Source of the DNA: Cliona cf. orientalis
Taxonomy: Eukaryota > Porifera > Demospongiae > Clionaida > Clionaidae
NCBI GenBank assembly: GCA_963930775.1
Contig: OZ005690.1
Span: forward strand, 14,162,411 to 14,226,410
DNA: 64,000 bases
Direction: 5' to 3'
Position 1 is the stretch's first letter; each line of letters opens with the position of its first letter. The notes beneath the pieces are model-generated. The model worked only from the letters and a program-made list of their open reading frames with translations. It searched no databases and was not told where the DNA came from. Below are positions 1-48,221 of the stretch, piece by piece. A program made the translations under genes and the position numbers.

Positions 1-57
1 ATGTTTATAGCCTGTTTCCCTATCATATTTTATGCACTATGCTCTCTCTTATTACAG

Positions 58-1220
58 TACCAGTTTTAGTGAAGGCTATTGCCACCCTCAACTACACAGA
101 AACTTCCGGTTGTCCTGGTGACGAGTTGGTTGTCACTTGTCAGGCTTTAAACACAAGCATATTAAGATGGTGCTTTGTGAACATTGAACCGATGCTAACA
201 TTCATAAATAATAATAGAACCGAACTATCTCTACCTATTAATGAGAGTGGAATAAGAACAGTTATTGTTGCTAAAGTGACGAGTAGGATATGCCATCTGA
301 ATGATTCGTGCTCCATGGAATCACTGATTGTGATTCCTCTTAGGCCAGACAGAATGAATTTCACACTGTTGTGTCATTCAGACAAAAGTGATTCAGAGAC
401 AATAAATATCACTACAAAAAGTGGTGAGTACAATGCATATTATGTGCATGTACGCATACGATGCACAATTTTTTCATAATAAAATTATGAAGAAATGTTC
501 ACAATACTAGCTGTAAAGTGATATGAATTTCCAAGGGGCAGAGGAGCTACTTTCACTTATGCATTTTTAGCCCTTCAAGGCATGGTGTGCATGTTCAAGG
601 GTTACAGTAGTCATTCTATGTGTGTCTGTCTGTCTGACAAGCCAGCTGCTACATACATGTACAGGTATACTGGTCTTAACAATGTAGTATACATGTATTA
701 TTATTATTATAATTTTCTAGAAGATGAATGTGTCTGTGGGACTGATATACCAACAGATGGTCCGACCAACCGTACTGTCAACGTTACCACTGAAGGACCA
801 CCAGACCCAGGGACCAGCCATGCTGCTAATAATACCACTGAAGGACCACCAGACCTAGTGACCACCAAGTCAGGTATATAATTATATACATCATGATTTT
901 TTTTTTCAAATTTGTGATGCAAAGATTTGGGGTAAATGCACATGCAAAGAATTACCTACATGTAAGATACACATTAATTGGCCTGGGTAGGTCAAGAAAA
1001 GTTATATGCACAATAGCATGCAAATTCATACAATACATAGGATCTAGATTATTGGATTATCTAATATGGCTCTAAATCCAAAAATGCTTTATTGTTATGA
1101 TATGCAGGAGCTCGAGGCTTAAATCAGACTTCGTTGGGAGTTATCCTTACCGCTGTGCTGGCGCCACTCATCTATATACAATGTCATGATAAGTTGCGAA
1201 ACCTAGCCTCTCTCTTTTGA
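58..1220 (+). CDS. Small Ig-domain, stalk, single-TM protein (5' partial)
   Basis: Three exons are visible: 58-423, 721-873 and 1108-1220 (stop TGA), all joined in phase 1 with GT-AG introns. The signal-peptide exon must lie left of the window, because the first acceptor (AG at 56-57) needs one carried base. Exon one encodes one Ig-like domain with the B-strand Cys (LVVTC), C-strand Trp (ILRW), a C-terminal-half Cys (TLLC) and many N-X-S/T sites. Exon two is a Cys-containing Thr/Pro stalk in which TTEGPPD occurs twice. Exon three gives a short hydrophobic segment (about LGVILTAVLAPLIYI) and a tail of about 14 residues with no tyrosine motif. The gene at 39942-41865 is a clear paralogue, with the same exon phases and similar intron starts. 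It converges on the receptor gene at 1403-4132. Ligand and role are unknown; a cell-surface recognition protein is the likely class. Confidence 0.75.
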
Positions 1221-1402
1221 CTTTATTTTCATACTGCTGGCTATTTTTATTAGTATCATTCATCATTTTTTATTGTTTTTATAGTGCCAATTATTATTAT
1301 TGTAGCGGTAAATTTTTACTTCCAATCCTTTGTGTAGTCATTAATATTATAACTAGAGTCAGCTTTTCTCAATCTCTCTTCTCTTTATCTATTATAGCTA
1401 TT

Positions 1403-4132
1403 CTATATAGCAGTTGGTAGTTGACGTACAGTTCCGTAAGCGACATTATCATTTAGCTTCACATTTTCCTCTTGAACCTCCATGGGAAACACAGTTTCAT
1501 ACACATGTGCATCAGGTAGGTGGGGTTCAGGTAATGACACAGAAGATTTTGACTGACACAGCTTGATTAGCATCACTATTGAAAGCAGAGCAGAAGTAGA
1601 AACCGATATTATGGTAATAGTGATAGTAATGATCATCCAGGTTGACTGTGATGCAGTGGTGTTTGGGTTCAGGGGATCTAGGCTGTCTGACTCTGCAAAT
1701 CAAGTAGAATGTGGTAAAGGTCACCACATGTGTAAGATATAAACCAGACAGACCACCTCCCCATTCCTCTAGCTTGCCTATGTAGTAATCAAATTACTTT
1801 TATATCCAAATCTAAACGTATAATGTACCTGACACATTATTGCAGAAGCCACTAAAGTCTGGTTCCCATTCTCCCCCTGCACTGCATATCATCGTATGCT
1901 GACACTGTGGCTCACTGAGACAGGTGACGTTGACCTCTGCACCCTCTTGTGTGCTGTTGTAGGCACTGACGTAGCCATTTGGGGGAGGGGCAGGAGGACC
2001 ACAGTTAGCTGCACAACAATAATTATGATAATTTATTACTGTTGTGTGTGAACACCTCATTACTGACACTTCATGAACTAGCTGAAATAATAACTAGTTA
2101 GGCAGATATTGTGAGGTAAAAATTGGACCGAGTGACCGAAAAAAAAAGAAAAAAAGCAATCAATTTATTGCATTATAGAATGCACAAAGAGGAAAGAAAA
2201 TAGAAATGGGGCTGGCAGTGATAAGTAGTGATGAAGCAAGTGCAGACTGAAGGACAACCAGATCAAACTGGCAAAAAATTAGGTGGTTATAGACCACAAT
2301 CTAATTAAGACAGACTAATATGACTACGTATCTAGGACCAGGGAATCAAGATAGAATACAAAAACCACTCTACTGTACATAAGCTCCACCCAACTTAGTT
2401 ACATTTTTTCTTCCGTTTGCCCAAAAATTGGAGGGAGCGAATCCATGCAACGACTTATTTAATTGGTCTGGCCTTATAATATTATGACAGCTTCCTGTTA
2501 TCAATAATCTCATCTCCAATAATTATTATAAACTCAATCCTCCTAACCATGATAATATTATTAATCATGCACACACACACCAAAATTTAGTAATTAATTA
2601 ACCCACTGTAAAACAGACTAAGGGTGTCTGATTGATTTTCATAGCCACATAGAACAGCAAAAGTGGTTAGGTTGTACTGAACATTGTAGGGTATAATCAC
2701 TTCACTGCCACTGCCACCAAGAACTACTCTCATTGACTCCTCAAGTGAAGAAGTGAATATGGCACCATAAGTGAGACCATTTATCATAGTTTGCAGTCCC
2801 TCAAGCTCCAGGGATGATCGTACATGTATTGTGATGTTATCTTCTCCAAATGATGGTTCTACAGCTATCATATCAAGACTTGCATTAAGATACCCTGTGT
2901 GTAATAGTATTAAATATTTATGTTGTATGTGCTATATACTATGGATTTAATGAATAGATCTAGAGTAAACTTACAAATGATTTGGATCACTTCTATGATG
3001 CTAATAGTAGTTTCTAAAGTATTTTGAGTGGACGATAAATACTCAGTACATGATATCTGCCAGTCCACTGTAGCATTAATAACGAACAGTGTGATATTAA
3101 ACGGATCTCTTGATTCACGGACAAATTTGAATGTAGTGCGGTTCACACTTAATGAAGGTATGCCCCGTATCTCTAGAGATGAGACGAGTCTTTGGCGAGA
3201 GTAGTTCGGTCCTGTGGTAATGCTCCACTCCAGGTACCTTCCGTTTGTGACACAATTCAGCAATACTTGATCACTTGAACACGTATGAATAACACCAAGT
3301 GGTGATAAATGAAGGCCTGTACATGTATTAAAGACAATACAAGTCTAATTTTAACAATCATCATTATTAAAGTTTGTTGTGTTTCCGTTCATCACAGCAT
3401 GCATAATTTTCGCCAACATTGAATTGCAAACTTATGGATTCGACGACCGTTTCCCACCCACCTAGCGTGTGATTAAACGACCATTTCCAGTTGCCATACG
3501 CCCGCCCCGGATGCACTGATTTGGAGTCACGGAAATTCTGTTCTATTTTTGACATAAAATATATCTCGAATGGCCTGTTTATAAATAATATTATAGGGTA
3601 CCGTGACAGGGGTGTACAAATGCCATAATGTCCGTTGCAGCTATTAAACTACCAACCAACTATGCATAATTATTGCTGTGTACACCGTTCTCCTTTCTCC
3701 TTTGCAATTGACCTGTAGTGGCCATCGATCACTGCAAGCAGCTGTAGCTCTTCAGCTAATAATACACAAGTTTTCTTATGATATAATACTGTACAGACTC
3801 ATTGCTATGTTTATCAATATTATATATTGATCACATGGAGTTTTCATGAGCAGTATACATAGCATGCACACAACAGTTATTGTACAAGACGTTTTGGCTC
3901 GGAAGCCTTTCAATTTATCAGCTGTACAACTCTATAATATATCTAGTAGCTAACTAGAAATCTATTATATCAATAATGTCATGCATGCATAATAACAAAG
4001 TTACATGCATGTATATAATAGTAGTGTTGCAGCAAACCATGCAGTATTACCTACAAAAATATGCATACCTTCTGTAAATTCGCCATTTTTCATGACCAGT
4101 AGTAGAGATAATGCAAGTAGAAAATAATTCAT
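1403..4132 (-). CDS. Ig/CCP (sushi) type I receptor with ITIM-like tail, copy A
   Basis: Five exons on the minus strand: 4132-4069, 3316-2975, 2894-2607, 2008-1829 and 1692-1403, all phase 1, total 387 aa. Residues 1-21 are a signal peptide (MNYFLLALSLLLVM). Exon 2 is an Ig-like domain (LNC...YLEW...ISC). Exon 3 is a second beta-sandwich-like region rich in N-glycosylation sites (Ig or FN3, not resolved). Exon 4 is a complete CCP/sushi domain with four Cys (NCG, VTC, MIC, GFC) and the Trp before the last Cys. Exon 5 holds a TM helix (about residues 310-334) and a tail of about 50 residues with two YxxV motifs, HVYETV and VAYGTV, 21 residues apart. VAYGTV fits the ITIM consensus. The closest relative is the gene at 42428-48221. 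The architecture suggests an inhibitory-type recognition receptor; the signalling role is inference. Confidence 0.82.
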
Positions 4133-5672
4133 CTTCAGCCAATACCAGTTGCTGTATTACTATAAATGAATAGGTCTTGTCTAGTGCAATTGCAATCAGC
4201 AGTACAGACTCAATCTGCATGGAGCTACTGAAACAACATTTATATGCATAACAATCATGTTAAACGTAAATACTTTTATTATGACATTGTACAACCAACA
4301 TGAAAGTTTGCTATAGTCACTATAATAATTATAATAGTATAGCATTGTCATTTAAAGTAATATAATATTATTATTATAGTGACTAGGTGCAGCAAGTACT
4401 TTTAGACTAAGCAGTAACAAATATTTCCCCAAGAATATGATTACAATCGTATCAACTATCATGCATAAACACGACATAAACAAAAAAAGTTGGGATTTTA
4501 CAGTTCCATAGCTGCTGATGATCATGACTAAAATTGTACTAGTGCTTATAATATTATTACAATAACTCTATTGTTAAAGCTGTGGCTTAATACTATGATA
4601 ACAATCTTGATTTTTTACCAGTGTGGCAGGACTAAAAGGTACACATTGTGCATGTACACCAGTGTATAATGATATATGTATGCACTTTAGTGTTTTATAT
4701 GTAGTGTATGAATGTATGCACTTTATCTTTCTAGTGGCACTTTACACTTATTATAATAATAATTATGTACATGCAAGTCTTGTAATTAGTTATCGTACAT
4801 CCCCCTCGAACATGCATTGCATTACTAGCAGTATGACGATACCCATAATAAATCATCTAACCTATGGCTCTAGCTGTATACGTGTCACTCATCACGGCAC
4901 TGCTGAGATACATGCATGCAAATTTTTCCTTTCATATCATGCATGATCATCCATAATTGCCTCACACACAATGCCATAATAATTATAATTATTTCTGAAT
5001 AATTCCATACTCATCAATGTGTGTATGCAAATCATAGGTATAAATATTATTATATAGGATGGGGCCAATTTATCACCACAGGAAGATTGAAGTGAATCTG
5101 ACTCTACAGTTTCTATGAGAATGGAATCATAATGGGCATTCCTATTATGATGAAAGGAGATCAAAGCATGCATGTGTATCAGCCCGGACAGCTCAGATAT
5201 TATTATAATAATAAGCAGGCTGCTACATATATATATATTATTGTGATTACTGATGCTGCATAATAATAGCTAATAATAATTATTATTAAAAGGTTAACTT
5301 GATTCATCATGCATGTGCTAAGAATGTGCCCACAGCATGCACAGCAGGGCTCAGTTTTTGTGGTCTCCGAATAGCTATCATGAATAGTAGTGTGTGCACC
5401 AATGTAATCTATAGCTGCTATTAAGGAGTGGATCTGCAATGAATTGCATAACAAAAAAAGGGGAGGATCAGCCAGTGGTCCAGGATCGATAATAACATAG
5501 TTTATTTTTAACCGAGTCTATAAGATAATGGTAGTTAACTCCCACAGTACAGCCACTGTATAATAATAATTATAATAATCATGTGATTGGTGGTTCAGAT
5601 TGTTGACATAACATCTCAATTGTACTGCTGCATGATTATTAATTTTTGTGAGTGCATCAGCATTCTAATGAG
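4133..5672. other. Divergent intergenic region between receptor A and tyrosinase 1
   Basis: No gene is supported here. The sequence is very AT-rich. Parts match two other places in the window: 4140-5000 resembles 48240-48860 (upstream of receptor C), and 5430-5760 resembles 21085-21500 (upstream of tyrosinase 2), for example the shared words CAGTGGTCCAGGAT and CCTCCAAAGTTGCATTATTA. It therefore belongs to the duplicated block and probably holds the promoters of both flanking genes. Confidence 0.6.
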
Positions 5673-5725: not shown

Positions 5726-5846
5726 AATAGTCATATTATTACTGTATCTACTGATTCAGACTGGTGAAGGTGAGCTATAGTTTCTTTATACCATTAATAG
5801 TAGTAAATATTAAATTTGCTGTATAATAATATTATTATTACTGCAG

Positions 5847-8108
5847 ATGTCGCTGCATTTGGGATTAGTGGCATTTGGTGTAATATTCACCATGATGATG
5901 ATGTTTCAGCCTTCCAATGGCCAATTTCCAACGGCATGCATGGACAATACAAGTCTACAAAATCGAAGATGTTGCCCCAATAACTGTGGTGGCAATCGTG
6001 GAACCTGCACCAATATTAATATTGCAAGACCAACAAGCGAATACAACTCCAAAACAGTGCGTAATCATTGGCCTTACTACTACACAAGCGTGTGCAGATG
6101 CAACGGTAATTACGCAGGATTTGATTGCAGCCGATGCAAGTATGGCTACTATGGAAGCGACTGCAATGAAAAGATGGACTGTCCTCGACGCCCGATTTCC
6201 GAACTCACTTCACAAGAGTGGACTGAATACATCAATACTCTGATAATGTCCAGAACTCATCAATCTGGATATTTCGTTTTTCTTCAGGAGCCTACCGGAC
6301 CAAATCATGATCTTAGGACACTGAACAAGACAGTTGTGACCAGTCTCTATGATCTCTTTATTTGGCAGCACCATTATGCAGCAAAAGATAATGATAACAA
6401 TGTAGATTGTAAGTGAAATTGTTATAAAATTTTTCTGGCCTATAGGAGTCTAATTATAAGATAGTGCTCATACTAAAGGTGGCAATTATTACAGGTAAAA
6501 TATATTTTACAAGTGCTACGTCATGGAAATGGTACAAAGTCTTATTCTAGAGTTCTATAATGCCAAATGTTAGCATGTATATATACAAAATTTGCATTTT
6601 TGAGCCAATCTGTAGAGAAATCAAACATTAGTACCCACAAACTTAAGGTACCTTATCCTAAACTTATTCCATTCAATCCCCTATAATTATTATGCTTATA
6701 TATACATAGATCTACTATTATTGCTATAGATGGTCATGAATCTACTGGATTTCCTACCTGGCATCGCCAATACCTGCTCTGGTTGGAGTGGGAGCTACAG
6801 TACATGCTGAAGGAGACACGGCCAAATACCTACCATACATTCAGACTTCACTACTGGGACTGGCGCAAGGAGCAACAAACCAGTGAAAACTCACCCTTCG
6901 TGAGCGACAGGCTTGGAGTGACTACTGACAATGGTACTGTTCAGCTCATGATTAATAAGCTTAGAGTGACTACAAACAATGGCAGCGTTCGGATAGACTT
7001 AGTGAGCAGTGCTAGTGGCTGGGAAACTAGGTGTTGGAATGTTAAAGGACGGATCTGTAATCCAAATGAACTCACTGGAAGCCTTCGACGCTGTCCTCAC
7101 ACTGATTCTGGGCAAGATCCTTGCCATTTTAACAATTCACATTGGCCAACTATTGAAGATGTCAACAAAGCTGCAGGAATGTCGAGCTATGATGGAAGTA
7201 CATACAATAAGTATTCAACTTCTGGATTTCGAAATTACATGGAAGGGTTTAAGGTACTCACTGATGACCAGACTGGGCGTCAAGATTGTGCTGACGATGA
7301 ATTATGCCAATGTGAGACTGGAGGTCCTGCTTGTTCTTGTGAGATTGGTTCTGATTGTGAAGGATCACAGCCAAGTCAACCCATTGCCAGGCTCATACAC
7401 AATAGTGTAAGTCAGTCCAACATTAATTTTATTTTGAGTGATGGTAGTGATACTAGTATACAAAATAATATTATTATTATGGTGAGCTAGTAGATAGTGC
7501 AGGTATATACTTGAAGGCAGTATAATCCTAGTCAATAAGTACCACAGGAGTATAAAATAATCATTAATATTGTCACTAATTCTTTAACTCTCTTATTATT
7601 ACAGATTCACATTATTCTGGGATTGGGCCACTTAAACAATAATTTGCTTCCTGCACAAAAAGGTGTCATGACTGATGTGGCAGCATCTTCTAGCGACCCC
7701 ATCTTTGTCAGCCATCATGCAATGATTGACTGCATACTGGAGGAGTGGCTTCAAAGGAACACAAATGCCCAGTATCCTGTGAATGAGCAAATTCATCAGG
7801 GTCATAGAGTAGACGACTACATGGTTCCTTTCTTTCCTCTTGTTAAGCACCGTGAAATGTTCATGACTGCTGATAACTTTGGTTACATGTGTAGACTTCC
7901 TCGAGTTGATACATCAAATCAACCGAGCCAACCGAACCAACCGAATCCACCTAATCCACCTAATCAACCTAATCCACCCAATAATCTCCCCAATCCAGGC
8001 AATTCTGCGATTAAGTCTGGTCCTACACTGTGGCTGTTCATACCTGTGGTATTCGGAATGGAATTACTTTTTATTCAATGTACAGTAATCATTGAAGCTT
8101 GGGCTTGA
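5847..8108 (+). CDS. Tyrosinase, vertebrate-TYR-like, membrane-anchored (copy 1)
   Basis: Three exons, 5847-6408, 6730-7406 and 7605-8108, give 580 aa. Tyrosinases are type 3 copper enzymes that hydroxylate monophenols and oxidise o-diphenols to quinones. Order: signal peptide (residues 1 to about 26, ending near SNGQ), Cys-rich EGF-like domain (CCPNNCGG ... CRCNGNYAGFDC), then the copper core. Copper A ligands fit H175 (WQHHY), H190 (GHESTGF) and H199 (PTWHR). Copper B ligands fit H411 and H415 (LIHNSIH) and H450/H451 (DPIFVSHHAMID). YMVPFFPL downstream is also typical of the TYR/TYRP family. A Pro/Asn-rich linker precedes a C-terminal TM helix near residues 555-575, so the enzyme should face the lumen or cell exterior. 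All copper ligands are present, so it is probably active. The paralogue at 21579-25486 lacks the linker. Start chosen at the ATG right after the acceptor AG. Confidence 0.92.
7914..7998 (+). repeat. Pro/Asn/Gln-coding tandem repeat in tyrosinase 1
   Basis: A short in-frame tandem repeat of AAYCAACCNAAYCCACC-type units codes for about 28 residues made almost only of Asn, Pro, Gln and Ser between the catalytic core (CRLPRV) and the membrane anchor (AIKSGPT). Tyrosinase 2 passes directly from CRLPRVN to VAIKSGPT, so this is a lineage-specific linker expansion. Confidence 0.8.
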
Positions 8109-8739: not shown

Positions 8740-8746
8740 CCCCCCC

Positions 8747-8783: not shown

Positions 8784-8785
<2 letters not shown>

Positions 8786-13340: not shown

Positions 13341-16300
13341 TATGTAATAATTTCTGCAAATCTCCCTACCTTGAAATCTACAATGAGGTGATCTTTGACC
13401 TCCTCCATGCTCCCCAGTGAAGCCACGCCCACATCGGCCACACCCACCTGTCCCCACGCTGGTGCTGGCGGTAGTGGACTGTGTGTGAGTGAGGATGACA
13501 GGGGTGTGGTCTCCGTCAAGGGACTTTCCCTACGACTGGCGACTAGTGAAGAAGATGCCCTCAATATGCTTTTCGAGGTAAAATTTATCTTCTTTTTTGG
13601 TATCTTGATGTTTATGCAGAGTCAAATTCATACTTGATTTAGAAGGGCTCAGAAGCAAAGTGGGCTAACCCTGTACTAAATGTGTGGAATTGTCTAAAAA
13701 GCTCAAAAATGGACTAAAAACCATATATTATTGTACTCTACCAATTTTCAAAAAATTGAATTACCTAGCTATAGCTCATGAAACCCATGTTTTCAAGTTT
13801 CGTAAGCTAAGTCAACGTTTGTGGGTTAGCCCACTTTGCTTCTGAGCCCTATTATTATTTTCTCCTCTCTCTCTCTCTTTCTCTCTCAAACATGCACACA
13901 CATATTTCCCATTTAGGGTGAGGCTAATCGTATGACTGGGGAGCACTCCCTCAATCAGCACTCGTCCCGTTCTCACTGCATCTTCACGGTGCACGTTGAG
14001 TCGAGGTCGCGAACCCTCTCCTCTCCCAACTACACTCTCTCCAAGCTCAACCTTGTTGACCTGGCCGGATCAGAGAGACTCAGCAAAACTAACGTGAGTC
14101 ACACGGGCATGTGCATGTACAAAAGACTTTCTGTTTTAGAATATTTTTATGGTCTTGTCCCCAGCAAAACTAACATAAGTCATATGAATACCGGCCGTAC
14201 TTAATCTATACAATGCATAGAAAAAAATAATTTCAATTTTAAATGCACGCCTTCCTGGTAAAGGTCGTCAATCACTCCAAGTATAACCGTTATAAGAATT
14301 CGTAAAAATTAATGCTAATTTCCTGTATTTAATTGGCTCATGCATTGTATTCGATTAACTACGCTATATACATGTACATCTTTACAAGGTTATTAAATTT
14401 TAATAACACATCTCTATCCTCATGCAGTCCACAGGCAATGTTCAGCGTGAAGCTCTCTACATCAACAAATCTCTCTCCTTCCTCGAGCAGGTGATACGAG
14501 CCCTCGCCGACAAGGGGCGTGGCCACGTCCCCTATCGACAGTCCAAGCTGACCCACGTCCTCAAGGACTCTCTCGGGGGGAACTGTAGCACAATGCTCAT
14601 CGCGAATATCTGGGCAGAGAGGGGACAGATTCTAGAAATGGTATAAATGTGGTTGGCATTTCAGGCAATACCTTAAGGATATAATATTACCGTATAGCCA
14701 GGAAAATTAGACGGAGAATTAAATTTGGCAGTTTGGCGGTCTATATTACAACTGCCAAATTAAAATCCGCCAAAATTTCCTACTGACATAATATATATAC
14801 GTATGGCGATTCCGTACCGAACCGCCAAATTTAAATCTGCTAATATTCTTGGAATTTGCGATTTTGGGCTCAACCGCCAAATTTAATTCCCGCCAATATT
14901 TCCAGCTATACGGTATACTTTTGTTGGCAGATACTAAATTTTAGTGAAATTAGCGATTAATTTTGTCCAATTTCGCTAAAATTTGTACCCACAAATTTAA
15001 TAATCGTAGCCCTGATGCAAGTACTTGTAACAACTATAATATTAAGGTATTGTATGGTATTGTAAAGTATTGAATCTGATTGGTCAATTGGAGGTTCACT
15101 ATAATATTGTATTTTTGCTCGGGATGCTACAGCCTCGGACCTCTGAGTGACCTATCAGATCACAGTATTTGTTACAACTATTGTTTAATGGAGGTATTAT
15201 AGGTATTGTAGGTATTGTAAGTATTGTAAGGTATTGTAGGTCAGGAATCTGATTGGTCAGTTGGAGGTCCACTATTTCACTTCGCTTTGCTTGGAATGCT
15301 ACAGCCTCGAACCTCTGGGTGACCAATCAGATCACAGTATTTGTATTTTAATGGAGGTATTGTAAGATATTGTATATAGGTATTATAGGTATTGTAAGGT
15401 ATTGTAGGTCAGGAATCTGATTGGGTTTGGAATGCTACAGTCTCGGGCCTCTGAGTGACCAATCAGATCACAGTATTTGTTGTAACTATTTTCTAATGGA
15501 GGTACATGTACATTGTCCATTGTAGGATCTAGGAGCTTGTAAGTTTTTGATGTATGATGCTATTAGCTGTTTTGTAGGTCTATAATATTATTATGTGTTA
15601 AAATTGACTTTTTAATTGTTTTGATTTCAGATCTCAACTCTTCGTTTTGCTACTAGAATGATGAATGTCTCCAGTGACCCTGTCCAGAACATTCACCACG
15701 ACTCTGCCGTGAGTTAAAATCCACATATATGTACATGTACATGTGCATGTGCAATGTTTCAGAGGTAGTTTTAATTATTTTGCAGCCAATTGGGAGTGTC
15801 CTAATTGCATGGGATCCAGCCCTCCTTGGGTAGTGATCAAATTCAAATGATTATGTAGATGTATATACAGTGGAACCCCTCTACTCCAGACACCCTTGAT
15901 CATTTCAGGAGTAGTCTTGTATGCTTCTCTGTGCAGCTGGGACTAAATAGTATGCACTGACTAAAAATGCTTTATTCCGTCACATTCCAGCAACTAGTGT
16001 GTCAGTATGAGGAACAGATCAAGGCACTGAAGCTAGAGCTATCGATGCACGACACAGTTGCCCAGCGAGGGACCGTCAGCTACGATCCCCTCGGAGATGA
16101 GGAGAAGGAGGAGATTGCCAAACAGGTCAACATGTTCATAGATGGAGTCATACCCGACATACAGGTGATAATAATTATTGACATGAATTTTCTTAATTAG
16201 AGTACCATATAGCCGGAAAATTTGGTGGTTTGGTGGTCTATATTACAACCGCCAAATTTAAATCCACCAATATTCTTCCAATAGAGATTTTGGGCTCAAC

Positions 16301-21420: not shown

Positions 21421-21578
21421 AGCTATACATTCCTAGCTACGTACCAATTCAGCAATAATTGTTACAGTACGTGAAGTGATGAAGGTGAGTTAGTTTTTTT
21501 TTGTTTTTTTTTTTTTGCATCACTAATAGTTACTGTAATAAATTTAATATCACTGTATTATTAATAATATCACTGCAG

Positions 21579-28163: not shown

Positions 28164-29870
28164 TTATATTATGGTGGTATAAGAATGGGCAGGTTCTTCT
28201 AACTTTTCCTGTTCCATTGTATACGCATTAATTGGTATTATATCCTCACCAGTATGCCGAGTTGATTTCCGATAATAACAATAACAGTATAGTATTGGTA
28301 TTATTGTGAAAATAATAATAATTATTATTAATATACAGGAGACAGTTGCAACCAGAAGTAATGCCTTGGAAAGACCACTTTCTACTGCAACAAAATAATG
28401 CAATAAATCATACCTAACTTTAACAACAATTACCTGAATCTTGGTTGCAGATATCAACTGGATTTGGTTCCCATCTGCCATCGTGACTACAAATTATCAG
28501 CAACGTATAATTTTCCTGCTGTTGTGGGTCTCTGCAGGTGATAATGACCTCTGAACCGTCTCGTGTGCTGTTTGCAGCATTGATATAGCCGTTTATGGGA
28601 GGAGCAGGAGAACCACAGTTAGCTGCATAAAATTATGAAAAATTTTAATTTTGGAAAAGGTCGTCACTCCAAAATGCTAGATAAGATAGAATGTCGACCC
28701 TATCTGTTCAATACCAGGGTGTAGCTAGCCCATGAACAATGCTATGGCTGAAGTGTATAGAAAAGGGGGGAGATTTTGGCCAAGATTTAGTATTGCTCAA
28801 AATAATAAATCTTGTGGAGATTGGTATGGCGAGGGCCACACTGTACCACGCCCTGGCTACACCTGTGTCAATACCATGTAAGCCTGTACTGAAGATACAC
28901 AATTTCTTGTGTCCACAAACATGACTTCTGATTGTTATTCCCAAATTTGCTTTGCTGGGAATGGGCGGCAGTGGCTAGTGGCAAAGTGTTGTGTGAATAA
29001 CTAAGGTGTTAGATATTGCAATATTATACCCCATGCTAAGAGTCATTATTATAATGAATATAATATAGCTCACCATAGGAGAAGTTCACACTAGAGGTGT
29101 ATCCACAGAGGCTTCCAAACACAGTCAGATTGTACAGCACGTTATAGGACAGTGTCACCATCATATCCTCGTCTGTTACAATCACAGTTGCTTTAGGTTC
29201 AACCACCATTTCAAAGGAGATATTTTTATGATACACGCTGTATGGTAGATCTTCCCCAAGTATCGCAATGGTTATATTCTTTTCTCCAGATGCAATCTCA
29301 GTCATGATCTGCTGAAAATGCTCAAGATACTCTGTTGAGGTTGAACAGCATAAAAGTAATGCATGGTTATGGCACAAGATCAGATTCTATGATTAGTGCA
29401 AGAAACTGTATTGGTAGAGTATGACAACCTTTACCAGAAAATCATGCAAAAGTCCCGAATAAACATGTTAGGTATACATTGCTGATCATTAGTAATTTTT
29501 TTAGAGACATACTTACGCACAACATCAGATTCGGAGATCACATCAACTGGTGTTGCCAAGGTGTGATTATTTGATGAATGTAAACCATAATATTCGATGC
29601 AAAATATTTTCATGTCGATTGTAGCATTGGTGATCGTCAATGTGATGTCTAGTGGCACTTTTGATTCACGAAGAAAACTGAAAGATGTGTAATTCACTGT
29701 TAGTGATGGGATATCTCTTTCTTCTGACGATGAGATGAGTCTTAAGCGATAATAGTTTCGATTAGGAATTGTGATGTTCCATTCCAGGAACTGTCCATCT
29801 GTAACACAGGTAAGCATTAGCTGTCGGCCTAGACACACATAGACATCTTTAGAGGGGGATAGTGTGAGAC
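28164..29870 (-). CDS. Ig/CCP type I receptor, divergent copy B (signal exon not found)
   Basis: Four exons on the minus strand, 29870-29517, 29331-29074, 28622-28434 and 28384-28164, joined in phase 1, match exons 2-5 of receptors A and C in order. They encode an Ig-like domain (LTC...FLEWNIT...IFC), the second beta-rich region (NITIAILGE...SLCGYTS), a CCP/sushi domain (NCGSPAPPINGY...ITC...IIC...DIC) and a TM helix (about 25 hydrophobic residues) followed by a tail of about 35 residues. The tail differs from A and C: it has AYTME and ends with SYTTII, a C-terminal YxxI, and no strict ITIM. The first Ig exon needs one carried base, so a signal exon must lie right of 29880, but I did not find a convincing one. 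No small Ig gene faces its 3' end. Confidence 0.75.
28671..29035. other. Intron of receptor B with two partly inverse segments
   Basis: CTGTTCAATACCAGGGTGTAGCTAGCC near 28706 is roughly inverse to GCCCTGGCTACACCTGTGTCAATACC near 28851: a short degenerate foldback. GGAAAAGGTCGTCACTCC lies at 28653. Confidence 0.5.
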
Positions 29871-39941: not shown

Positions 39942-41865
39942 ATGGGAGTGTGCAAAGGCAAAGATACACGATATCATGCATGTATCATTGCTGTTGGGAT
40001 ACTAGTCACAGGTAATTATTTTGTATTTTAGCCTGTTTCCCTATCAGTGGTGTGTCATGTTTTATGCACTGTGCTCTCTCTTATTGCAGCAGCTTTCTCA
40101 CCACCTTTGGTTTGGGGTAGTGCCACCCTGAACTATACTACAACTACAGGGTGCCCTGGTGAGCACGTGATTGTCACTTGTTTGACATTGAGCACGGATT
40201 TACTAAAATGGATCATAATGGATCAAGGAGAAATCGGATTCAGATCCAGCAATGTTGTATCTTATCAACGACCACTGAGTGGGACTCCCATTGTGGCCAC
40301 TTTAACAATGAAAAGCTGTTCAAATAATACTACTTTATGTTCATTGGAATCACTGATTGATGTTCCTATCTGGTCAGAGATGGGGAATTTTACACTGGCA
40401 TGTCAGTCCAGCAAAAATGAGTCGGAAAGGATTGCAATTACTACAAGTGGTGAGTACAATGCATAATATATTATGTACATGTATGTATACGATGTACAAT
40501 CTATTAACAACACAAGTATACATATATAAAGAATTTTTATTGTTCACAGTACTTTAAAGTAGTATCTCCTACATGTATACGAGTTTCAAGGGGTAGAGGA
40601 GCTACTTTCATGCGTATGGATTTATAACCCTCAGTGTGCATGTTCATGGGTTGCAGTAGTCGTTCTATGTGTGTCTCAAGCTAGCTAAGCTATATACATG
40701 TACTACATATTTACATGTACAGACCAGTGCAATGAGACTGATATCTTGGAAGATCCGACGATTAACTCTACTACTATCGCTGAAGTATCAGCTGTTACCT
40801 ACACACCAGAACCATTGCCAGGAAACAACAGCTCAGGTATACATCATGATTTTTTAAACTTTTTGATAGTGTTTTATATACAAAGATTTGGGGATCTATA
40901 CATACTTGGTAGCAGTTACCATAGCAACATAATCTTCAACCTCAAATTGTGGGATAGTTAGAGGTGATAGAGGGTCATGGATCTTGTAACAAATACTGTA
41001 ATCTCATTGGTCCAAACTAGGATTCTAAATAAACTCATAGAATCCTTGTAAAAATTGCATGCATGTCTCAAGGCCATAGCTACATAGCAATAAATTTCTA
41101 ACTGTCATGGCAGCCTTGCTCAGGTAAGATATAGAATAGAAACTAAACTACGTATACAGAGGCTTATTACATAGAGCTACACACTGCTTGCCTTGTCCAG
41201 TGGCAGCTGGCACAATAAACGTGATTCTATTAAAAGCACACTTGATGATCAATAGGAGTGGCTATCTGAGCTCAAAAGTTCAATAGCTGCCATGACACTT
41301 GTACCAGTGTTGACAAGACCTCGAAGATGACAGTATTTTGCTCGATTTATGACTTGTCGCATAGTATTACAAAAAGTTTTCAGCTTGTTGCTAGGATCTA
41401 AATATATTAGACCATGGTTAATTACTAGCTAGGTTTCCACGTGGATATGATGCAAATACATAATTAGGTAGGGTCTGTAATACATGTAAATAATAGATTA
41501 TTGGGTTACCGTAGGACGGGTTTTAATTGCGTAGTTTAATAATTGCGTTCTAGTCAAGTCAGGCCAAATTGTGAATCCAATAATTGCGATGGACGACCCC
41601 GTACCATACTGTAGTATACGTGCACGTTTGTATTGGCGAATCTATTAATTGCGAAACGTAGAAAAACTCACAATTCGCAATTAAAACCCGACCTACGGTA
41701 TCTAATATTATGGCTCTGAATTCAAAAACACTTTATTATTTGATTACAGGAGCCTTCATTCAGGCTTCGTTAGGAGTTCTCCTTACCCCTGTGCTCGTGA
41801 CAGTCATCTACAATGTCATGTGGGCAAACCTCTCTCCTAATTTTCTATTTTTCTATTTAGTGTGA
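39942..41865 (+). CDS. Small Ig-domain, stalk, single-TM protein E
   Basis: Four exons, 39942-40011, 40090-40449, 40723-40836 and 41750-41865, all phase 1, give 219 aa. Exon 1 is a signal peptide (CIIAVGILVTA). Exon 2 is one Ig-like domain (VIVTC, LLKW, TLAC) with several N-glycosylation sites. Exon 3 is a Thr/Pro-rich stalk with one Cys (DQCNE). Exon 4 is a hydrophobic segment (ASLGVLLTPVLVTVIY) plus a short hydrophobic end without tyrosine motifs or charged TM residues. It is collinear with the gene at 58-1220, and the similarity includes intron starts (GTGAGTACAATGCATA), so the two are recent duplicates. It converges on receptor C, as the first does on receptor A. No ligand can be inferred. 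With so short a tail it would need a partner to signal, or acts as ligand or decoy. Confidence 0.82.
41509..41698. mobile_element. MITE, CCGTAGGACGGG family, copy 2
   Basis: 190 bp flanked by TA. Ends CCGTAGGACGGGTTTTAATT and AATTAAAACCCGACCTACGG form an inverted repeat. In the last intron of small Ig gene E. Confidence 0.88.
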
Positions 41866-42427
41866 AATGACTTCATTGTTATATATACTGCCAGCCTTTA
41901 CATTATAGCAAGCTCCTGTGAGATACATACTTGTGTCTAGCTAGGTTGGATTACTGAAATCATCAATCACACAGGTTTAATTTAAATCTCCATTTCGTTT
42001 TAAATGATTTTGTTGCCTTTCCTGACAGCTATGAGATTTATTCTGTACACTATATATATTTTCATTATATGATGATGATACTTATGTTTTCAAAATCGAT
42101 TAGATTTGCATTGTCCTTTATAATCAATTTCAAAAACCCTTCCCCCACCATATCATTCGTGTAAAGCTAGCTATTGTGAAATTATAGATGTCATATTATT
42201 ATTATCTAGATCTCCCCTCTCTCTCTCTCCTTATTTGAATGGCTGGTGCTCCTAATTTTTCTATTGTCCTCAGTACCTTGTGCACCTCATCATGCAAATT
42301 TTGTATCAGATTCTATTTTTATGCGGCCATCATTTGTTATTATTATACAGCTAATTATTACTTTCTTTGTGTGTACCCTTTTCTCAATCTCTCTTCTCTT
42401 GACTCATCTACAACAACAATTTCTATT
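41866..42427. other. Convergent 3' intergenic region
   Basis: AT-rich, no exon. It corresponds to the much shorter 1221-1402 between the first gene pair and includes TTCTCAATCTCTCTTCTCTT, also found at 1365-1386. Confidence 0.5.
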
Positions 42428-45400
42428 CTATAATATAACAGCTGGTAGTTGACGTACAGTTCCGTAAGCAATGTTATCATTTAGCTGCACATTTTCCTCT
42501 TGAAATTCCATTGGAAACACAGCTTCATATACAGGGATCACTTGTGCGTCAGGTAGGTGGCCATGGGGATCAGGAAATGACTCCGATGACACAGAAGATT
42601 TCGACTGACACAGCTTGATTAGTACAAGTCCACATACTACCGAAAGTAGAGCAAAAGTAGAAACGGATGTTACGGTAACAGTGATAGTAATGATCATCCA
42701 GGCTGATTGGGATGTAGTAGTGGTGTTTCTGCTTGGGCTCAATGGATCTGGCTCTGCAAAATTTAATAATGCAAGTCGACTTAAAACTCCCCACATGTGT
42801 AAGTATGATAGGCAGGGAGTACTGCATATAATGAGCTTTTTCTTCTGACGACCTTTACCCACACCAAATGGAGTGGGTAAAGGTCGTCAGAAGAAAAATG
42901 TTCTAGACCATACACGACATGAGACGAATAAAATACTCGCCGCTACTACATGTACCTAGTACTAGTGACATCAAGTTCAGAAAATTAAGTTTACTACGGG
43001 AGTTCAATTCAACACTTCTAATCTTTATCTACTCCTGCTGATGTAATATTATTATATACCTGACACATTTTTGCAGAAGCCGCTGAAGTCAGGCTCCCAT
43101 TGTCCTCCCGCACTGCATATCATCGTATGCTGATGTTGTGGCTCACTGAGACAGGTGACGTTAACCTTTGCACCCTCTTGTGTGCTGTTGTAGGCTGTGA
43201 CATAGCCATTTGGGGGAGGGGCAGGAGGACCACAGTTAGCTACATAACAATAATTATTATTAATTATTTTGTGTGTAAGCATCTCATTACATGATAATAT
43301 TATATAAGCCTACGTACATGTACTGTCATGCTAGCTAGCTAACTTCCTGCTGTCAGTAACCTCATCTCCAATAATAACTATTTTTATCTCAGTCGTCCCT
43401 AACTATAATAATAATATTATAGGTCCCGGGCATGAAGTTTCCTGGTATTTATAATCACGCACACACCAAATTTAATAATTAACTCACTGTAAAACAGACT
43501 GAGGGTGTCTGATTGATTTTCATAGCCACATACTACGGCAAAAGTGGTTAGTTTGTACTGAACATTGTAAGGTATAGTCACTTCAACATTGGCACCATCA
43601 CTGCCTATTCTTATTGTCTCCTCAAGTGAAGAATTCGAAGTGAATATGGCACCATAAGTGAGACCATTTATTCCCTCGAGCTCTAGGGACAATCTTACAT
43701 GTAGTGTGATGTTATCTTCTCCAAATGATGGTTCTACAGCTATCATATCAAGACTTGCATTAAGATACCCTATGTGTAATATATAGTATTATGGATATTA
43801 TGTTACATTATTATGACATTGTGCTACTACTATCATAATAATATTATTATTATACGTGATCTAAATAAACTTAGATCCTACTTGTAACAAATACTGTAAT
43901 CTGATTGGTTAAACTGAAGTATCTATCCTTCATAGAAAATCATGTAAGCTCTGTAGAAAATCATGTAAAGCTCTGTAGAAAATCATGTAAATTTTCTTGC
44001 CTATGGCTAGGGTTGTTGCTAGGCAGCAGTTTATGTGTCTAGCTTTTGGGCATTGTTGCTAGGATCTAAACATGTTAGACACTGTTTAGTCAGTTTCTAT
44101 GTGATTTAGAAGACCTCAGGGCTCAGTAGAACCCTCGCTTCGCTCGGGATTCTACACAGAGCCCTTTGGTCTTCTAAATCACATAGAAACCTCCTAAACA
44201 GTGTCTAACTATTATAAAGATTCTTTTTGGACAATTTAACTGTTCGGTAAAACTTGCCGATGTTTCGACTAGATGCTCTAGTCATCCTCAGGGCAAAAGG
44301 AGGAGGATGAGTCGAAACGTCAGCAAGTTTTACTGAACAGTTAAGTTGTCCGAAAAGAATCTTTGCAGAGCAACTAAGAACGATGTCACATTATACGTGA
44401 TCTAACAAAGAGATTAAACTTACTATTGATGTGGACCACTTCTATGATGCTAATGGTGGTTTCTAAAGTATTTTGAGTAGAATCTGATGATGAATATTCA
44501 ATACACGATATCTGCCAGTCCACTGTAGCATTAATAACGAACAGTGTGATATTAAGCGGAACTCTTGATTCACGGACAAATATGAACATAGTGCGGTTCA
44601 CACTTAATGAAGGTATGTCCCGTATCTCTGAAGATGAGATGAGTCTTTGGCGAGAATAGTTCGGGCCTGTGGTAATATTCCACTCCAGGAACATTCCATT
44701 TGTGACACAATTCAAAGATACTTGGTCACTTGAACACGTATGAATAATACCAAGTGGTGATAAATAAAAGCCTGTAAGTTTAATACAGATAATTAAGAAT
44801 TATCATCACTATTAAAAATTTCAGGTTGTGTTTCCGTCCATCACAGGAGGTCGATTTGAGCCATCCTAAATCAATGATTTCTCAGTACAGGCAAACTTAT
44901 GGGTTCTTTTTTTTTTTTTTTTTTTTGTCTATAATATTTCTGATGCCAATTATAGCAACAAGGTTAACATGAATAGCTAAAAAGCTAATACAAAACATGT
45001 AACCTACTAAACTAATGACAATTATATTATCGTTACATTACAACAGTGGTAAAATATTTGAAAGTGGCAAGAGATGACAAAGACTCGTTATTTATTACAA
45101 GACTATTCCATAGTGATATTGAATGGGGATAAAATGAAAACTGGTATTGTGATGATTGTGCAAATAAAGTTTGTATCTGCGCTTGATTACTCCTTCGACA
45201 ACTATATTGTAGAGCTCTGTGAGCGACTGGAGCATTCTCACAGTCCACTAGTCGATATATGACTTTGTACAGGTGACACAGTTTGGCTGTCCTGCGACGG
45301 CTTGAGAGAGAAGATAACTGGCAGCGGTCCAGCAAATCACAATATGGTGCAGACCAGTCTTTGCAGCACACTCGTAGGGCAAACTTTTGTGTTTTTTCAA

Positions 45401-48221
45401 GGAGATCAATATCTTTGACCAAGTGAGGGTCCCAGACCTGTGGGGCATACTCAAGATGTGGACGGATGAACGATTTATAAAGTGTTAGCAACAACTCTGG
45501 GCTACAGTGGTGGAATCGTCTGTAGAAAAGGCCAATAAGACGACCGTTTCCAGCCGCCCGCCCACGGATATATACCGGATGAGGAACTGATTTTCCATTG
45601 GAATCACAGAATTCTGTTCTATATAATATTTTTGACATAAATATACCCCTGCATGGTATCTCGAATAGCGAGATGACGCGGCGGAGCGAACGAATTTCAT
45701 GGCCTGTATTTAATGTACATACAAATGTATGGACATACTGAATGCCATAACTACGGTGGCCCTGGAGGTCACGCGTCATTCCAGTTTGGCTCCTCCTACC
45801 TCCGTGCGTCGTCATGCCAGTTCCTGTCCTCCCACCTCCGTCACTCCAGTTCTGCATTGGTCGTCATGCCAGTTGCTGTCCTCCGTCACGCCAGTTCCTG
45901 TCTTCGCACCTCCGTCACTTCAGTCGCTGTGTTCGAATCTCCATCATTCCAGTATTTCTCAGTCCTCACTCCAGTGACCTACCCTCGTCAGTTGTCACGC
46001 CAGTTGCTGTCCTCCATCATTCCAGTGAGGGGCTGTCCTCGACTTGAACTCGTGCCTTTGCACCCTGAACCCCTAATTTTACACCGCTCATAACACTAAT
46101 GAAGATGAAAATCTTGTTGTTCTAATACTTTTACTGATGACCAGTGTCTGGTCTAGCTACACAGGGATGTCGGATGATCCTGAGGTTGATAGCTGTGAGT
46201 CAACTACTCTATGGCAAGTGTATGAATGTTGCTAGTGACTCCCCGAATTGCAACTCACTGGTGCCAGTGTATAGGCTTGGCAGTCTAGTGCACTATTTGA
46301 ACCTGACTATCATGAGTATGCTGGGATCATATCCCTTGGGGCTGTTGGGGCACTGCTTCAGACTAAGCCCAATCACGGTATAGGGAACGACTACACGCTA
46401 GGTCTGAATCCTGTATGAACCCCTGGCAAACTAATGTCATATTCCAGGGTATGACAAATTATTCCTTTCTTATAGGGCCTTTCTCCTGGTCCTATGTGTG
46501 ATGATCGTATGTAGCTAGTGAGTCGAGGGTGCTACTAGAGGACAAACTAATTAAGTCATTGCAATGTGATCATGACAGCTATTGCACACTGTAAGTAAGC
46601 TAATAATATTGTAACAGAATACTGATTCCAGTGTCATACCCTGGAATACGACATTAGTTTTGCCAGGGGTTTGTACATGATTCAGACCTCTCCTCAACTC
46701 CGACACAATTAATCATGACTTTCCATCCCACTATCTGTACCCTTTCTCATCTTCCTTCTTTTTCTGTAAGCGTCGTTCCCATCTGAAACTGTTTACACCC
46801 TGATGTTGTATCATCCTCTCCTCCTATTTTTAAGCATTTGTTGAAATTATTGCCTGTAATTTAAGTTTTATTCTTTCACCACTTGCTTGTATATTCTCAC
46901 TGCTTATGTTTTTGGGCAGCCTTAATATTAGCCTTTTTGGCTAGGTGGCTTGTCCTGATGTATACTGTATGCTTGTACATTGAACTTGTGTAAAGAAAAA
47001 AGCCCAATCAGGATATAGTGAACGCCGGGCTGCTAGCTATAGGGGTGAGGGGTGAAAAATGATGGCTGAATGATGGACAAGTTGTTCTTGATACGATAAC
47101 ACAAAGCTGTCTTCTGTTTTTCTCTTTGTGGAGAGAGTTGACCGGTTTAGATGAGCAGGTGGTCATAACTGTCACTCCAGTTCTCGGTAACCAAACCGTT
47201 GGATAGCTTCCAGCTTTTGGGAGTGGATTGCAAAGTGAGGGTCCCACAAAGGAGCGCAGTAGTCCAGTGTAGGCAACACCAGAAATTTGTAGAGCTGGGT
47301 TAAGACTTAGTCTGAAGCAGGGCCCCAACAGTCCCGAGTTGATGACCCAGGCATACTCATGATAGTCTTGAAATAGTGCACTTGACTGCCAAGCCAGTGG
47401 GTTGCAATTCGGGGAGTCACTAGCAACATTCATACACTTGCCATAGAGTAGTCTAGCTGACTCACTATCAACCTCAGGAACATCCCTGTGTAGCTAGACC
47501 AGACACTGGTCATCAGTAAAAGTACAAGAAGATTTTCATCTTCATTAGTGTTATGAGGGGTTCAGGGTGCAAAGGCACGAGGTTCAAGTCGGACAGCCCC
47601 TCACTGGAATGATGGAGGACAGCAACTGGCGTGACGACTGACGAGGGTAGGTCACTGGAGTGAGGACTGAGAAGTACTGGAATGATGGAGATTCGAACAC
47701 AGCGACTGGAGTGACGGAGGTGCGAAGACAGGAACTGGCGTGACGGAGGACAGCAACTGGCATGACGACCAATGCAGAACTGGAGTGACGGAGGTGGGAG
47801 GACAGGAACTGGCATGACGACGCACGGAGGTAGGAGGAGCCAAACTGGAATGACGCGTGACCTCCAGGGCCACCGTACATAACATCTAACTCCTCCGGCC
47901 CATTGCAGCTATTATTAAATAAGTAGCCACCAACCAATCATGCGTAATTATTGCTGTATACACTTCTCCTTTGTAATTGCCCTGTAGTGGCTATCACTGC
48001 AAGCAGTTGTACTATACGTTTTCTATATTAGAAATCTATTGTAATAATAATTATCAACATGCATAATAATTATTATTTTTATTATGTATCATTTATAATG
48101 TGTGCATGTATATTAAATATCAGTGTTGCAGCAAACCAGTTCCTATGAAATTATACATACCTTCTGTAAGTTTGGCAATTTTCATGACCAGTAGTAGATA
48201 TAATGCACGTAGAAAATTCAT
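42428..48221 (-). CDS. Ig/CCP type I receptor with ITIM-like tail, copy C
   Basis: Five exons on the minus strand, 48221-48161, 44771-44424, 43769-43488, 43239-43060 and 42753-42428, phase 1 throughout, give 398 aa. Signal peptide (MNFLRALYLLLVM), Ig-like domain (LNC...FLEWNIT...ISC), a second N-glycosylated beta-rich region (DNITLHVRLSLELEG...VVCGYEN), a CCP/sushi domain (NCGPPAPPPNGY...VTC...MIC...GFC), a TM helix (about residues 309-334) and a cytoplasmic tail. The tail keeps two tyrosines 21 residues apart as in copy A: PVYEAV and IAYGTV, the latter fitting the ITIM consensus. The first intron is 3.4 kb against 0.75 kb in copy A because of a LINE fragment and a foldback element. The probable role is an inhibitory-type surface receptor; ligand unknown. 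Confidence 0.82.
42843..42891. repeat. Perfect hairpin containing the AAAGGTCGTCA word
   Basis: CTTCTGACGACCTTTACCCAC is the exact inverse of GTGGGTAAAGGTCGTCAGAAG (one mismatch in the stem next to the loop). It lies in the last intron of receptor C. Confidence 0.85.
43885..44210. repeat. Palindromic element in receptor C intron
   Basis: TTAGACACTGTTTAG, TTCTATGTGATTTAGAAGACC and the inverse GGTCTTCTAAATCACATAG, CTAAACAGTGTCTAA form a long hairpin at 44083-44207. The same hairpin recurs at 58521-58664. Its left flank (ACAAATACTGTAATCTGATTGG, GTTGCTAGG) matches the far side of that second copy. Confidence 0.85.
44228..44345. repeat. Second palindromic element in receptor C intron
   Basis: GGACAATTTAACTGTTCGG, AAACTTGCCGATGTTTCGAC and the inverse GTCGAAACGTCAGCAAG, CTGAACAGTTAAGTTGTCC form a hairpin with loop GATGCTCTAGTCATCCTCAG. 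One arm and loop occur alone at 12690-12765. Confidence 0.8.
44908..45600 (-). mobile_element. 5'-truncated LINE (reverse transcriptase C-terminal end)
   Basis: On the minus strand an ORF ending at 45033 encodes the thumb and post-RT region of a non-LTR retrotransposon: LLLTLYKSFIRPHLEYAPQV, WDPH, LEKTQKFALRVC, LSSLSSRRRTAKL. Past the stop, a run of about 20 T on the plus strand (44908-44928) is the poly(A) tail of the insert. The RT catalytic core is absent, so it is a dead-on-arrival copy. It lies in intron 1 of receptor C and is absent from receptor A. Confidence 0.82.
45752..47877. mobile_element. Foldback transposon, long inverted arms, 6-bp target duplication
   Basis: 2.1 kb. The outer ends TACGGTGGCCCTGGAGGTCA and TGACCTCCAGGGCCACCGTA are perfect inverses, and the arms (about 45752-46380 and 47305-47877) stay alignable for about 570-620 bp. 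CATAAC lies directly outside both ends, a 6-bp target duplication. Each arm contains degenerate subterminal tandem repeats around CTCCGTCACTCCAGTTCCTGTC. The loop holds a nested inverted repeat (46403-46453 / 46633-46685) and a LINE remnant. No transposase ORF is seen. Receptor A intron 1 reads through the same flanking sequence without it. Confidence 0.85.
47170..47300 (-). mobile_element. LINE reverse-transcriptase remnant inside the foldback element
   Basis: On the minus strand one frame reads LYKFLVLPTLDYCAPLWDPH then KLEAIQRFGYRELE and a stop, the same family-typical region as the LINE at 44908-45600 but a different sequence. Only about 40 codons remain. Confidence 0.7.

What the first reader, a model, noticed from the sequence alone, without database searches (positions are those of the whole stretch)
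1..48221. Duplicated convergent pairs of Ig receptors: candidate immune or allorecognition-type cluster
Twice (58-4132 and 39942-48221) a small signal-Ig-stalk-TM gene without a signalling tail converges on an Ig + second beta-domain + CCP + TM receptor with tyrosine motifs. A third Ig/CCP receptor (28164-29870) and a third small Ig gene (61746 to the end) are present. All share phase-1 exons, which favour domain shuffling, and the copies have diverged mostly in the ectodomains. Tail-less and tail-bearing Ig receptors in linked pairs are a known feature of recognition complexes in other animals; that this cluster does the same is inference.
Basis: partly seen in the sequence, partly recalled or inferred. 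Interest (0 to 1): 0.88.

Follow-up and report, generated by a model that had tools for sequence, protein, structure and literature searches.

The report
Giant sponge Ig-receptor gene cluster
The two linked receptor pairs in this piece of sponge DNA are real and lie at one end of a several-megabase cluster of antibody-like receptor genes that standard domain searches miss, which is a candidate for the unknown genes that let sponges recognise self or microbes.

Summary
Two S genes (signal, Ig, stalk, hydrophobic C-end, no signalling tail) converge on two R genes (signal, Ig, second beta domain, CCP, TM, tyrosine tail), with GT-AG, phase-1 introns. A third S-R arrangement straddles the window's right edge.

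Genome searches give the wider picture. The S and R Ig domains, almost invisible to Pfam, are branches of one family. At least 108 S-type and 59 R-type exons (about 135 loci) lie in 3.7 Mb of C2; the best Pfam V-set and Ig_2 matches lie elsewhere. AlphaFold2 gives S3's domain a V-set-like Ig fold (pLDDT 89.6; nearest solved folds mostly T-cell receptor V domains). Seven of eight R tails carry an ITIM-like motif.

S and R are not paired across the cluster; convergent pairs are a local segmental duplication. R1/R2 diverged least in the ectodomain. dN/dS is below 1 wherever computable in domain exons. Polymorphism and function are untested.

The genome is very probably the sponge Cliona cf. orientalis. 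Best reading: a germline-diversified recognition-receptor complex, immune or allorecognition, resembling the Hydractinia ARC in layout; membership is not shown.

The parts
58..423 (+). S1 exon 2: Ig domain (signal exon 1 lies outside the window at -53 to -11)
   Evidence: GT-AG, phase 1; cluster Ig HMM E=5e-5; hhalign of the S1+S2 profile 94.6%
721..873 (+). S1 exon 3: Thr/Pro-rich stalk
1108..1220 (+). S1 exon 4: hydrophobic C-end, no tyrosine motif
1403..1692 (-). R1 exon 5: TM and tail with VAYGTV (ITIM-like)
1829..2008 (-). R1 exon 4: CCP/Sushi
   Evidence: Pfam Sushi 20.9 bits, cut-off 20.7
2607..2894 (-). R1 exon 3: second beta domain, probably FN3-like
   Evidence: paralogue L062 hits Pfam fn3 E=2.2e-4, below cut-off
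2975..3316 (-). R1 exon 2: Ig domain
   Evidence: hhalign of the R profile against the cluster Ig profile 92.8%
4069..4132 (-). R1 exon 1: signal peptide
28164..28384 (-). R3 last exon: TM and tail
   Evidence: no ITIM pattern
28434..28622 (-). R3 CCP exon
   Evidence: Sushi 16.6 bits, below cut-off
29074..29331 (-). R3 second beta domain
29517..29870 (-). R3 Ig exon; no convincing signal exon upstream
39942..40011 (+). S2 exon 1: signal peptide
40090..40449 (+). S2 exon 2: Ig domain
   Evidence: cluster Ig HMM E=5e-7; hhalign with S1 94.6%
40723..40836 (+). S2 exon 3: stalk
41750..41865 (+). S2 exon 4: hydrophobic C-end (TM or GPI signal)
42428..42753 (-). R2 exon 5: TM and tail with IAYGTV (ITIM-like)
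43060..43239 (-). R2 exon 4: CCP/Sushi
   Evidence: Pfam Sushi 25.9 bits
43488..43769 (-). R2 exon 3: second beta domain
44424..44771 (-). R2 exon 2: Ig domain
   Evidence: low-confidence AF2 beta sandwich
48161..48221 (-). R2 exon 1: signal peptide
61746..61794 (+). S3 exon 1: signal peptide
62772..63134 (+). S3 exon 2: Ig domain, V-set-like fold
   Evidence: AF2 pLDDT 89.6; nearest solved folds mostly TCR V domains; 49 of 50 genome matches in the C2 stretch
63463..63558 (+). S3 exon 3: start of stalk; rest of the gene not found

Best explanation
The window is the distal end of a megabase-scale complex of germline-encoded immunoglobulin receptors on chromosome 2 of a demosponge. R genes encode single-pass receptors: a V-set-like Ig domain at the tip, an FN3-like domain, one or two CCP domains, a TM helix, and a short tail that mostly ends in a conserved ITIM-like tyrosine box. 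The likely mechanism is that the Ig domain binds a cell-surface or microbial ligand, a Src-family kinase phosphorylates the tail tyrosine, and an SH2 protein (a phosphatase or Grb2-like adaptor) sets or dampens the cell's response. S genes encode Ig proteins of the same family; S1 and S2 are held at the surface without a tail and could be ligands, decoys or co-receptors. New specificities arise by tandem and segmental duplication followed by divergence. Shown: gene structure, homology, predicted fold of the S3 domain, clustering, tail motif. Inferred: surface location, phosphorylation, ligand type, and a role in non-self (immune or allogeneic) recognition.
For: Gene models. S-type and R-type Ig belong to one family: hhalign 94.6% (S1+S2) and 92.8% (six R rows; 95.6% with ten) against a profile of 32 other family exons from which S3 and one R-type row had been removed; best of 30 column-shuffled controls 2.0%, 5.1% and 0.7%; R second domain 0.14%. 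Clustering: 108 of 154 distinct S-type exons and 59 of 61 R-type Ig matches lie in C2:10.55-14.24 Mb, 1.7% of the genome. Controls on the same genome: none of 91 V-set matches and none of the 150 Ig_2 matches scored (of 1087 candidates) lies there. Fold; Cys-Trp-Cys invariant in 54 sequences. Tails: ITIM pattern in 7 of 8 (summed shuffle expectation 1.3), with the C-terminal N[VI][AC]Y box in 6 of 8 across about 2 Mb (paralogues, so not independent). Same layout in three R genes sampled elsewhere in the cluster. Database relatives: 92 for the S type and 533 for the R type, this genome's own included.
Against: dN/dS is below 1 in every domain exon where it could be computed (two comparisons saturated). 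In nine other cluster pairs, drawn from 11 loci, exons are more conserved than flanking DNA, so general diversifying selection is not seen. A database relative of L064 (P0100), possibly an allele, differs little (94% over 155 residues). S and R are not paired cluster-wide. R0 has an in-frame stop and R4 a frame shift, so some members are probably pseudogenes. The R2 Ig model itself is low confidence. No expression, polymorphism or binding data.
Confidence: 0.6

Rival explanations
1. Specific form of the best explanation: this is the sponge allorecognition locus, comparable in role to the Hydractinia ARC. Allele matching at some of these Ig proteins decides fusion or rejection of tissue.
For: One linked complex of diverse Ig receptors that Pfam misses, with tyrosine tails in the R type; linked, low-identity Ig receptors are the layout reported for the Hydractinia ARC (PMC11067881 section 17, passages). 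S1/S2 have a patch in the middle of the Ig exon at 45.5% identity (shuffled mean for the exon 44%) between introns of 90% and 79%. In the six single-Ig pairs the middle third is the least conserved third each time, though only slightly in some.
Against: No allele data. Exons of other pairs are conserved; in the two-Ig genes the middle third is lowest in only 2 of 6 exon comparisons. Sponge allorecognition work has centred on aggregation factors (recalled). The possible allele P0100 is close to its counterpart.
Confidence: 0.2
2. The genes are ordinary cell-adhesion or developmental Ig receptors that happen to have expanded in tandem, with no role in non-self recognition.
For: Purifying selection on the exons compared; a review gives sponge Ig proteins mainly adhesion and recognition roles (PMC11999971, abstract and passages).
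Against: The number (about 135 loci), low identity between members, pseudogene-like members and concentration on one chromosome would be unusual for developmental adhesion genes (the judgement is mine).
Confidence: 0.25
3. In this window each S gene is the dedicated ligand or co-receptor of its convergent R partner, and the pair is a functional unit.
For: S and R were duplicated together as one block; S3-R4 at the window edge repeats the arrangement.
Against: The arrangement is local: S/R order across the cluster is random. S1/S2 Ig identity is 47% while R1/R2 is 83%, so partners have not diverged in step. R3 has no S partner beside it in the window.
Confidence: 0.15
4. Part of the cluster is an assembly artefact from uncollapsed haplotypes.
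For: Curation of the probable assembly removed 81 haplotypic duplications (PMC12639293, passages).
Against: Most matches share only 25-50% identity with the queries, far below likely haplotype divergence.
Confidence: 0.05

Closest known systems
Hydractinia allorecognition complex (ARC), Alr1/Alr2 family
   Same: One linked region with dozens of Ig-superfamily receptors of low sequence identity, where structure prediction supported the Ig assignment, plus pseudogenes (PMC11067881 section 17, passages; PMC13119343 passages, for a relative with 22 genes in its complex).
   Different: Sponge, not cnidarian. About 135 loci against at least 41. R-type ectodomain adds FN3-like and CCP domains. No polymorphism or allorecognition phenotype shown here. 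No sequence homology to Alr tested.
Vertebrate leukocyte Ig-receptor clusters (paired ITIM/short-tail receptors such as LILR/KIR; fish NITR)
   Same: Linked families of Ig receptors, some with ITIM tails and some tail-less (general knowledge, recalled; LILRB ITIMs also in PMC11999971 passages).
   Different: CCP and FN3-like domains; no charged residue seen in the S1/S2 hydrophobic segments; no pairing across the cluster.
Botryllus fester / uncle fester and fuhc region
   Same: CCP-bearing TM receptors proposed for allorecognition (recalled; search listing only).
   Different: No Ig V domain recalled for fester; tunicate; no homology tested.
Sponge aggregation factors
   Same: Extracellular complexes long studied in sponge cell recognition (recalled; PMC11999971 passages).
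   Different: Secreted proteoglycans, not Ig receptors.

Membership tests
Immunoglobulin superfamily | Ig fold | tested here: met
Immunoglobulin superfamily | Conserved B-strand Cys, C-strand Trp, E-strand Leu, F-strand Cys | tested here: met
   C30, W42, C107 invariant and L95 at least 90% in 54 sequences; C21, W30, L76, C89 invariant in 9 R-type sequences. Strand labels are mine, recalled.
Immunoglobulin superfamily | Match to a curated Ig sequence model | tested here: not met
   0 of 6 window proteins over cut-off; 1 of 54 family members with any Pfam Ig match at E 0.01. This reflects the sensitivity of the models, not the definition of the superfamily.
Sushi/CCP domain proteins | Sushi domain over Pfam cut-off | tested here: met
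   R1 and R2 over cut-off, R3 below; 2 of 4 CCP exons tested from L062-L064 over cut-off.
ITIM receptors | [SILV]xYxx[ILV] in the cytoplasmic tail | tested here: met
   7 of 8 R tails; R3 lacks it. Pattern recalled.
ITIM receptors | Phosphorylation and SHP/SHIP recruitment | not testable with these tools
   needs biochemistry
Hydractinia ARC-type allorecognition system | Linked cluster of diverse Ig receptors | tested here: met
Hydractinia ARC-type allorecognition system | High allelic polymorphism of the ectodomain | not testable with these tools
   one haplotype held; no reads or second individual
Hydractinia ARC-type allorecognition system | Genetic control of fusion/rejection | not testable with these tools
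   needs crosses or grafts
Hydractinia ARC-type allorecognition system | Homology of the Ig domains to Alr domains | not tested
   no Alr sequence was compared; the PNAS paper was not held
Paired activating/inhibitory receptors | Pairing of tail-less and ITIM members as a rule of the cluster | tested here: not met
   S/R order random, 65 switches against 65.2 +/- 5.6

The most novel reading that the evidence does not exclude
Sponges have an MHC/ARC-like complex: over a hundred T-cell-receptor-V-like Ig receptors, many with inhibitory-type tails, in one chromosomal interval that governs tissue compatibility. That would push linked, germline-diversified Ig recognition back to the sponge lineage and supply the missing sponge allorecognition locus.
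Probability: 0.2. Interest if true: 0.95.

Novelty: new variant of a known kind. Interest (0 to 1): 0.82.

Why it matters
The genes behind sponge self/non-self discrimination are, to my knowledge, not settled. Surveys of sponge genomes count Ig domains by Pfam or InterPro models (for example PMC12465263, passages), and Pfam misses this family almost completely (0 of 6 over cut-off, 1 of 54 at E 0.01). A 3.7-Mb interval with gene models, a predicted fold and a tail motif makes the question directly testable, if the genome is Cliona cf. orientalis as I infer, in a species with long reads, RNA-seq and a deposited alternate haplotype (PMC12639293, passages). If the role is confirmed, large linked complexes of V-like Ig receptors with tyrosine tails would be either much older than thought or repeatedly invented.

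Tried and rejected
Pfam for the Ig claim: found no Ig over cut-off, so structure and profile comparison were used instead. Full-length R2 against 5.8 billion proteins: no hit at E 0.001, perhaps because database proteins there are exon-sized; exon profiles gave 92 and 533 hits. AF2 of R2 Ig with three sequences: pLDDT 57, and its fold search gave generic beta sandwiches, none at E 1e-3; not used as proof. First hhalign test (R 96.9%, S 94.9%): on checking, its cluster profile held one R-type row (L042, minus strand) and the window's S3, so I repeated it without them (R 92.8%, S 94.6%; one search was a failed script). The second domain did not match the S-type genes' extra beta exon at first (0.3%) nor convincingly with more members (15%, shuffled max 0.5%); FN3 rests mainly on L062 (fn3 E 2.2e-4, below cut-off), with L064 weak (0.044) and L063 none. 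The extra beta exon of S-type genes has no Pfam fn3 match at all (3 tested), so 'FN3-like' there is my reading of motifs. General S-R pairing was rejected. A receptor-kinase cluster: no listed kinase match lies in the stretch, but only 119 of 2511 candidates were scored and the list was cut, so this is not excluded. Sushi as a control was dropped: the 150 best of 700 candidates show none on C2, yet R-type CCPs are Sushi domains too weak to reach that list (29 CCP-type matches in the stretch). General hypervariability was rejected on nine pairs. PDB sequence search with profile A7: 60 rows, by name nearly all Ig-domain proteins, none significant (best E 0.029); with R profile A8: five rows, none significant. 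Papers: ten searches; those aimed at sponge Ig or allorecognition genes listed no title or abstract reporting a sponge chromosomal Ig-receptor cluster. I saw listings, and passages of seven papers; only open-access papers are held.

In one search, two of the six rows (stalk and C-end exons of S2 itself) were left out before counting. The exon counts rest on five protein queries with capped candidates, so they are lower bounds.
Full report
What was checked. All intron borders are GT-AG and all introns are phase 1. S1 (225 codons with stop) starts 53 bp before the window; R1, S2 and R2 are complete with signal exons; R3 has no convincing signal exon within 3.5 kb and S3 no convincing TM exon before 67.8 kb. 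S1-R1 and S2-R2 converge. A profile scan of 144 kb found R0 at about -37 to -35 kb, an Ig-only fragment at -18.5 kb and R4 at 70.3-67.8 kb. tblastn also picked up an R3-like tail at -6.8 kb (only a weak 7.5-bit hit). All R genes in this stretch are on the minus strand and all S genes on the plus strand, so S3-R4 is a third convergent arrangement at the window edge. R0 has an in-frame stop in its second-domain exon and R4 a frame shift in its CCP exon, so these may be pseudogenes or assembly errors.

The pair as a duplicated block. DNA from -1.1 to 4.9 kb matches 38.7 to 48.9 kb collinearly, with gaps (66-88% identity), so S and R were copied together. Within S1/S2 the two introns beside the Ig exon are 90% (67 aligned bases) and 79% (240 aligned, 90 gap columns) identical, the outer thirds of the Ig exon 68%, and the middle third 45.5%; shuffled sequence over the whole exon gives a mean of 44%. 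Other parts of the block are also weak: S intron 3 is 54%, mostly gaps, the 5' flank 40%, the stalk exon 58%. The patch follows the C-strand Trp (my assignment) and suggests replaced or fast-evolving sequence in one part of the S domain. In R1/R2 the picture is reversed: exons 85-91% in DNA, the two introns measured 52-56% with large gaps. Nine other pairs, drawn from 11 loci of this family, all show exons more conserved than flanks; in the six single-Ig pairs the middle third is the least conserved third each time (the pairs share members). dN/dS is 0.15-0.43 for R1/R2 domain and tail exons and 0.34 for the S1/S2 Ig exon; the only value above 1 (1.82) is the 14-codon S signal exon, and two R3 comparisons are saturated.

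How big is it? Three Ig queries gave 49 of 50, 97 of 138 and 102 of 117 matches in C2:10.5-14.23 Mb (counted). Merged with four rows they give 154 distinct exons, 108 of them in that stretch. The R2 query gave 102 matches, 94 in the same stretch; of its 61 Ig-type matches 59 lie there, and none overlap the S-type exons. That makes at least 167 Ig exons in about 135 loci in 3.7 Mb, 1.7% of the genome. None of 91 Pfam V-set matches, and none of the 150 Ig_2 matches scored of 1087 candidates, lies there. Small satellites occur at C10:5.93-6.00 Mb and C1:2.7-3.0 Mb.

Architecture elsewhere in the cluster. S-type genes sampled have one Ig plus a further beta exon that I read as FN3-like without Pfam support, or two Ig exons; a TM exon follows in several where the fetched stretch reaches it. 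R-type genes at 13.90, 13.30 and 12.16 Mb repeat Ig, second domain, one or two CCP, TM, tail. Of eight R tails, seven contain [SILV]xYxx[ILV] (summed shuffle expectation 1.3), and six end in N[VI][AC]Y[GE]x[ILV]. The tails are paralogues, so not independent; the three distant tails are read from single open frames, not from spliced transcripts, and two of the eight (R0, R4) come from genes that may be broken.

Pairing. Across 135 loci, S and R alternate as expected at random (65 switches against 65.2 +/- 5.6). Convergent S-R neighbours number 17 of 65, about 15 expected from strand frequencies (my arithmetic).

Whose genome? C2 is 14,801,553 bases and the total 216.8 Mb; Cliona cf. orientalis has chromosome 2 of 14.8 Mb, 217.17 Mb in all and 19 chromosomes (PMC12639293, passages). 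This is inference from sizes. Database relatives: 92 for the S type and 533 for the R type, of which 120 were listed; none of the 212 listed has a precomputed Pfam domain. Of these 212, six are at least 99% identical to sequence held here (this genome, one of them the window itself) and 17 are 80-99%.

Comparison. The nearest known system by layout is the Hydractinia ARC: linked, diverse Ig receptors supported by AlphaFold, and pseudogenes (passages). Shared: clustering, low identity, an Ig fold that sequence models miss. Not shown here: polymorphism, phenotype, homology. I therefore say it may work like such a complex, not that it is one.

Noticed in passing
window 5814-8108 and 21489-25486: Two tyrosinase-domain genes on the + strand, apparently duplicated (Pfam Tyrosinase E 2.5e-12 and 6e-11), lying between the Ig genes.
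   Followed up: partly
window 50146-52696; also near -23 kb and 73.6 kb: NIDO-domain gene (Pfam E 2.2e-20); frames like its 52.5-kb exon recur at -23 kb and 73.6 kb. The R0 and R4 regions with their surroundings are a segmental duplication, mostly 74-95% identical.
   Followed up: partly
window 13917-14201: Kinesin motor exon (Pfam E 5.3e-19) inside the Ig region.
   Followed up: no
window 45.7-46.4 kb and 47.0-47.9 kb: The same open frames appear on opposite strands inside R2's first intron, which looks like a large inverted repeat.
   Followed up: no
L037 1691-3305 (C2:11.347 Mb): Tandem repeats of about 90-315 bp after the TM exon of a two-Ig gene, many holding a short LEETKDKE-like frame: possibly repeated mini-exons of a tail.
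   Followed up: partly
C10:5.93-6.00 Mb and C1:2.7-3.0 Mb: Satellite loci of the same Ig families outside chromosome 2.
   Followed up: no
C18:0.71-0.73 Mb and C14:7.39-7.45 Mb: Dense arrays of Sushi exons, unrelated to the C2 cluster by position.
   Followed up: no
P0027 (database protein): A member of this Ig family is filed as a Proteobacteria MAG protein (MJE68_04145), probably host contamination of a bacterial bin.
   Followed up: no
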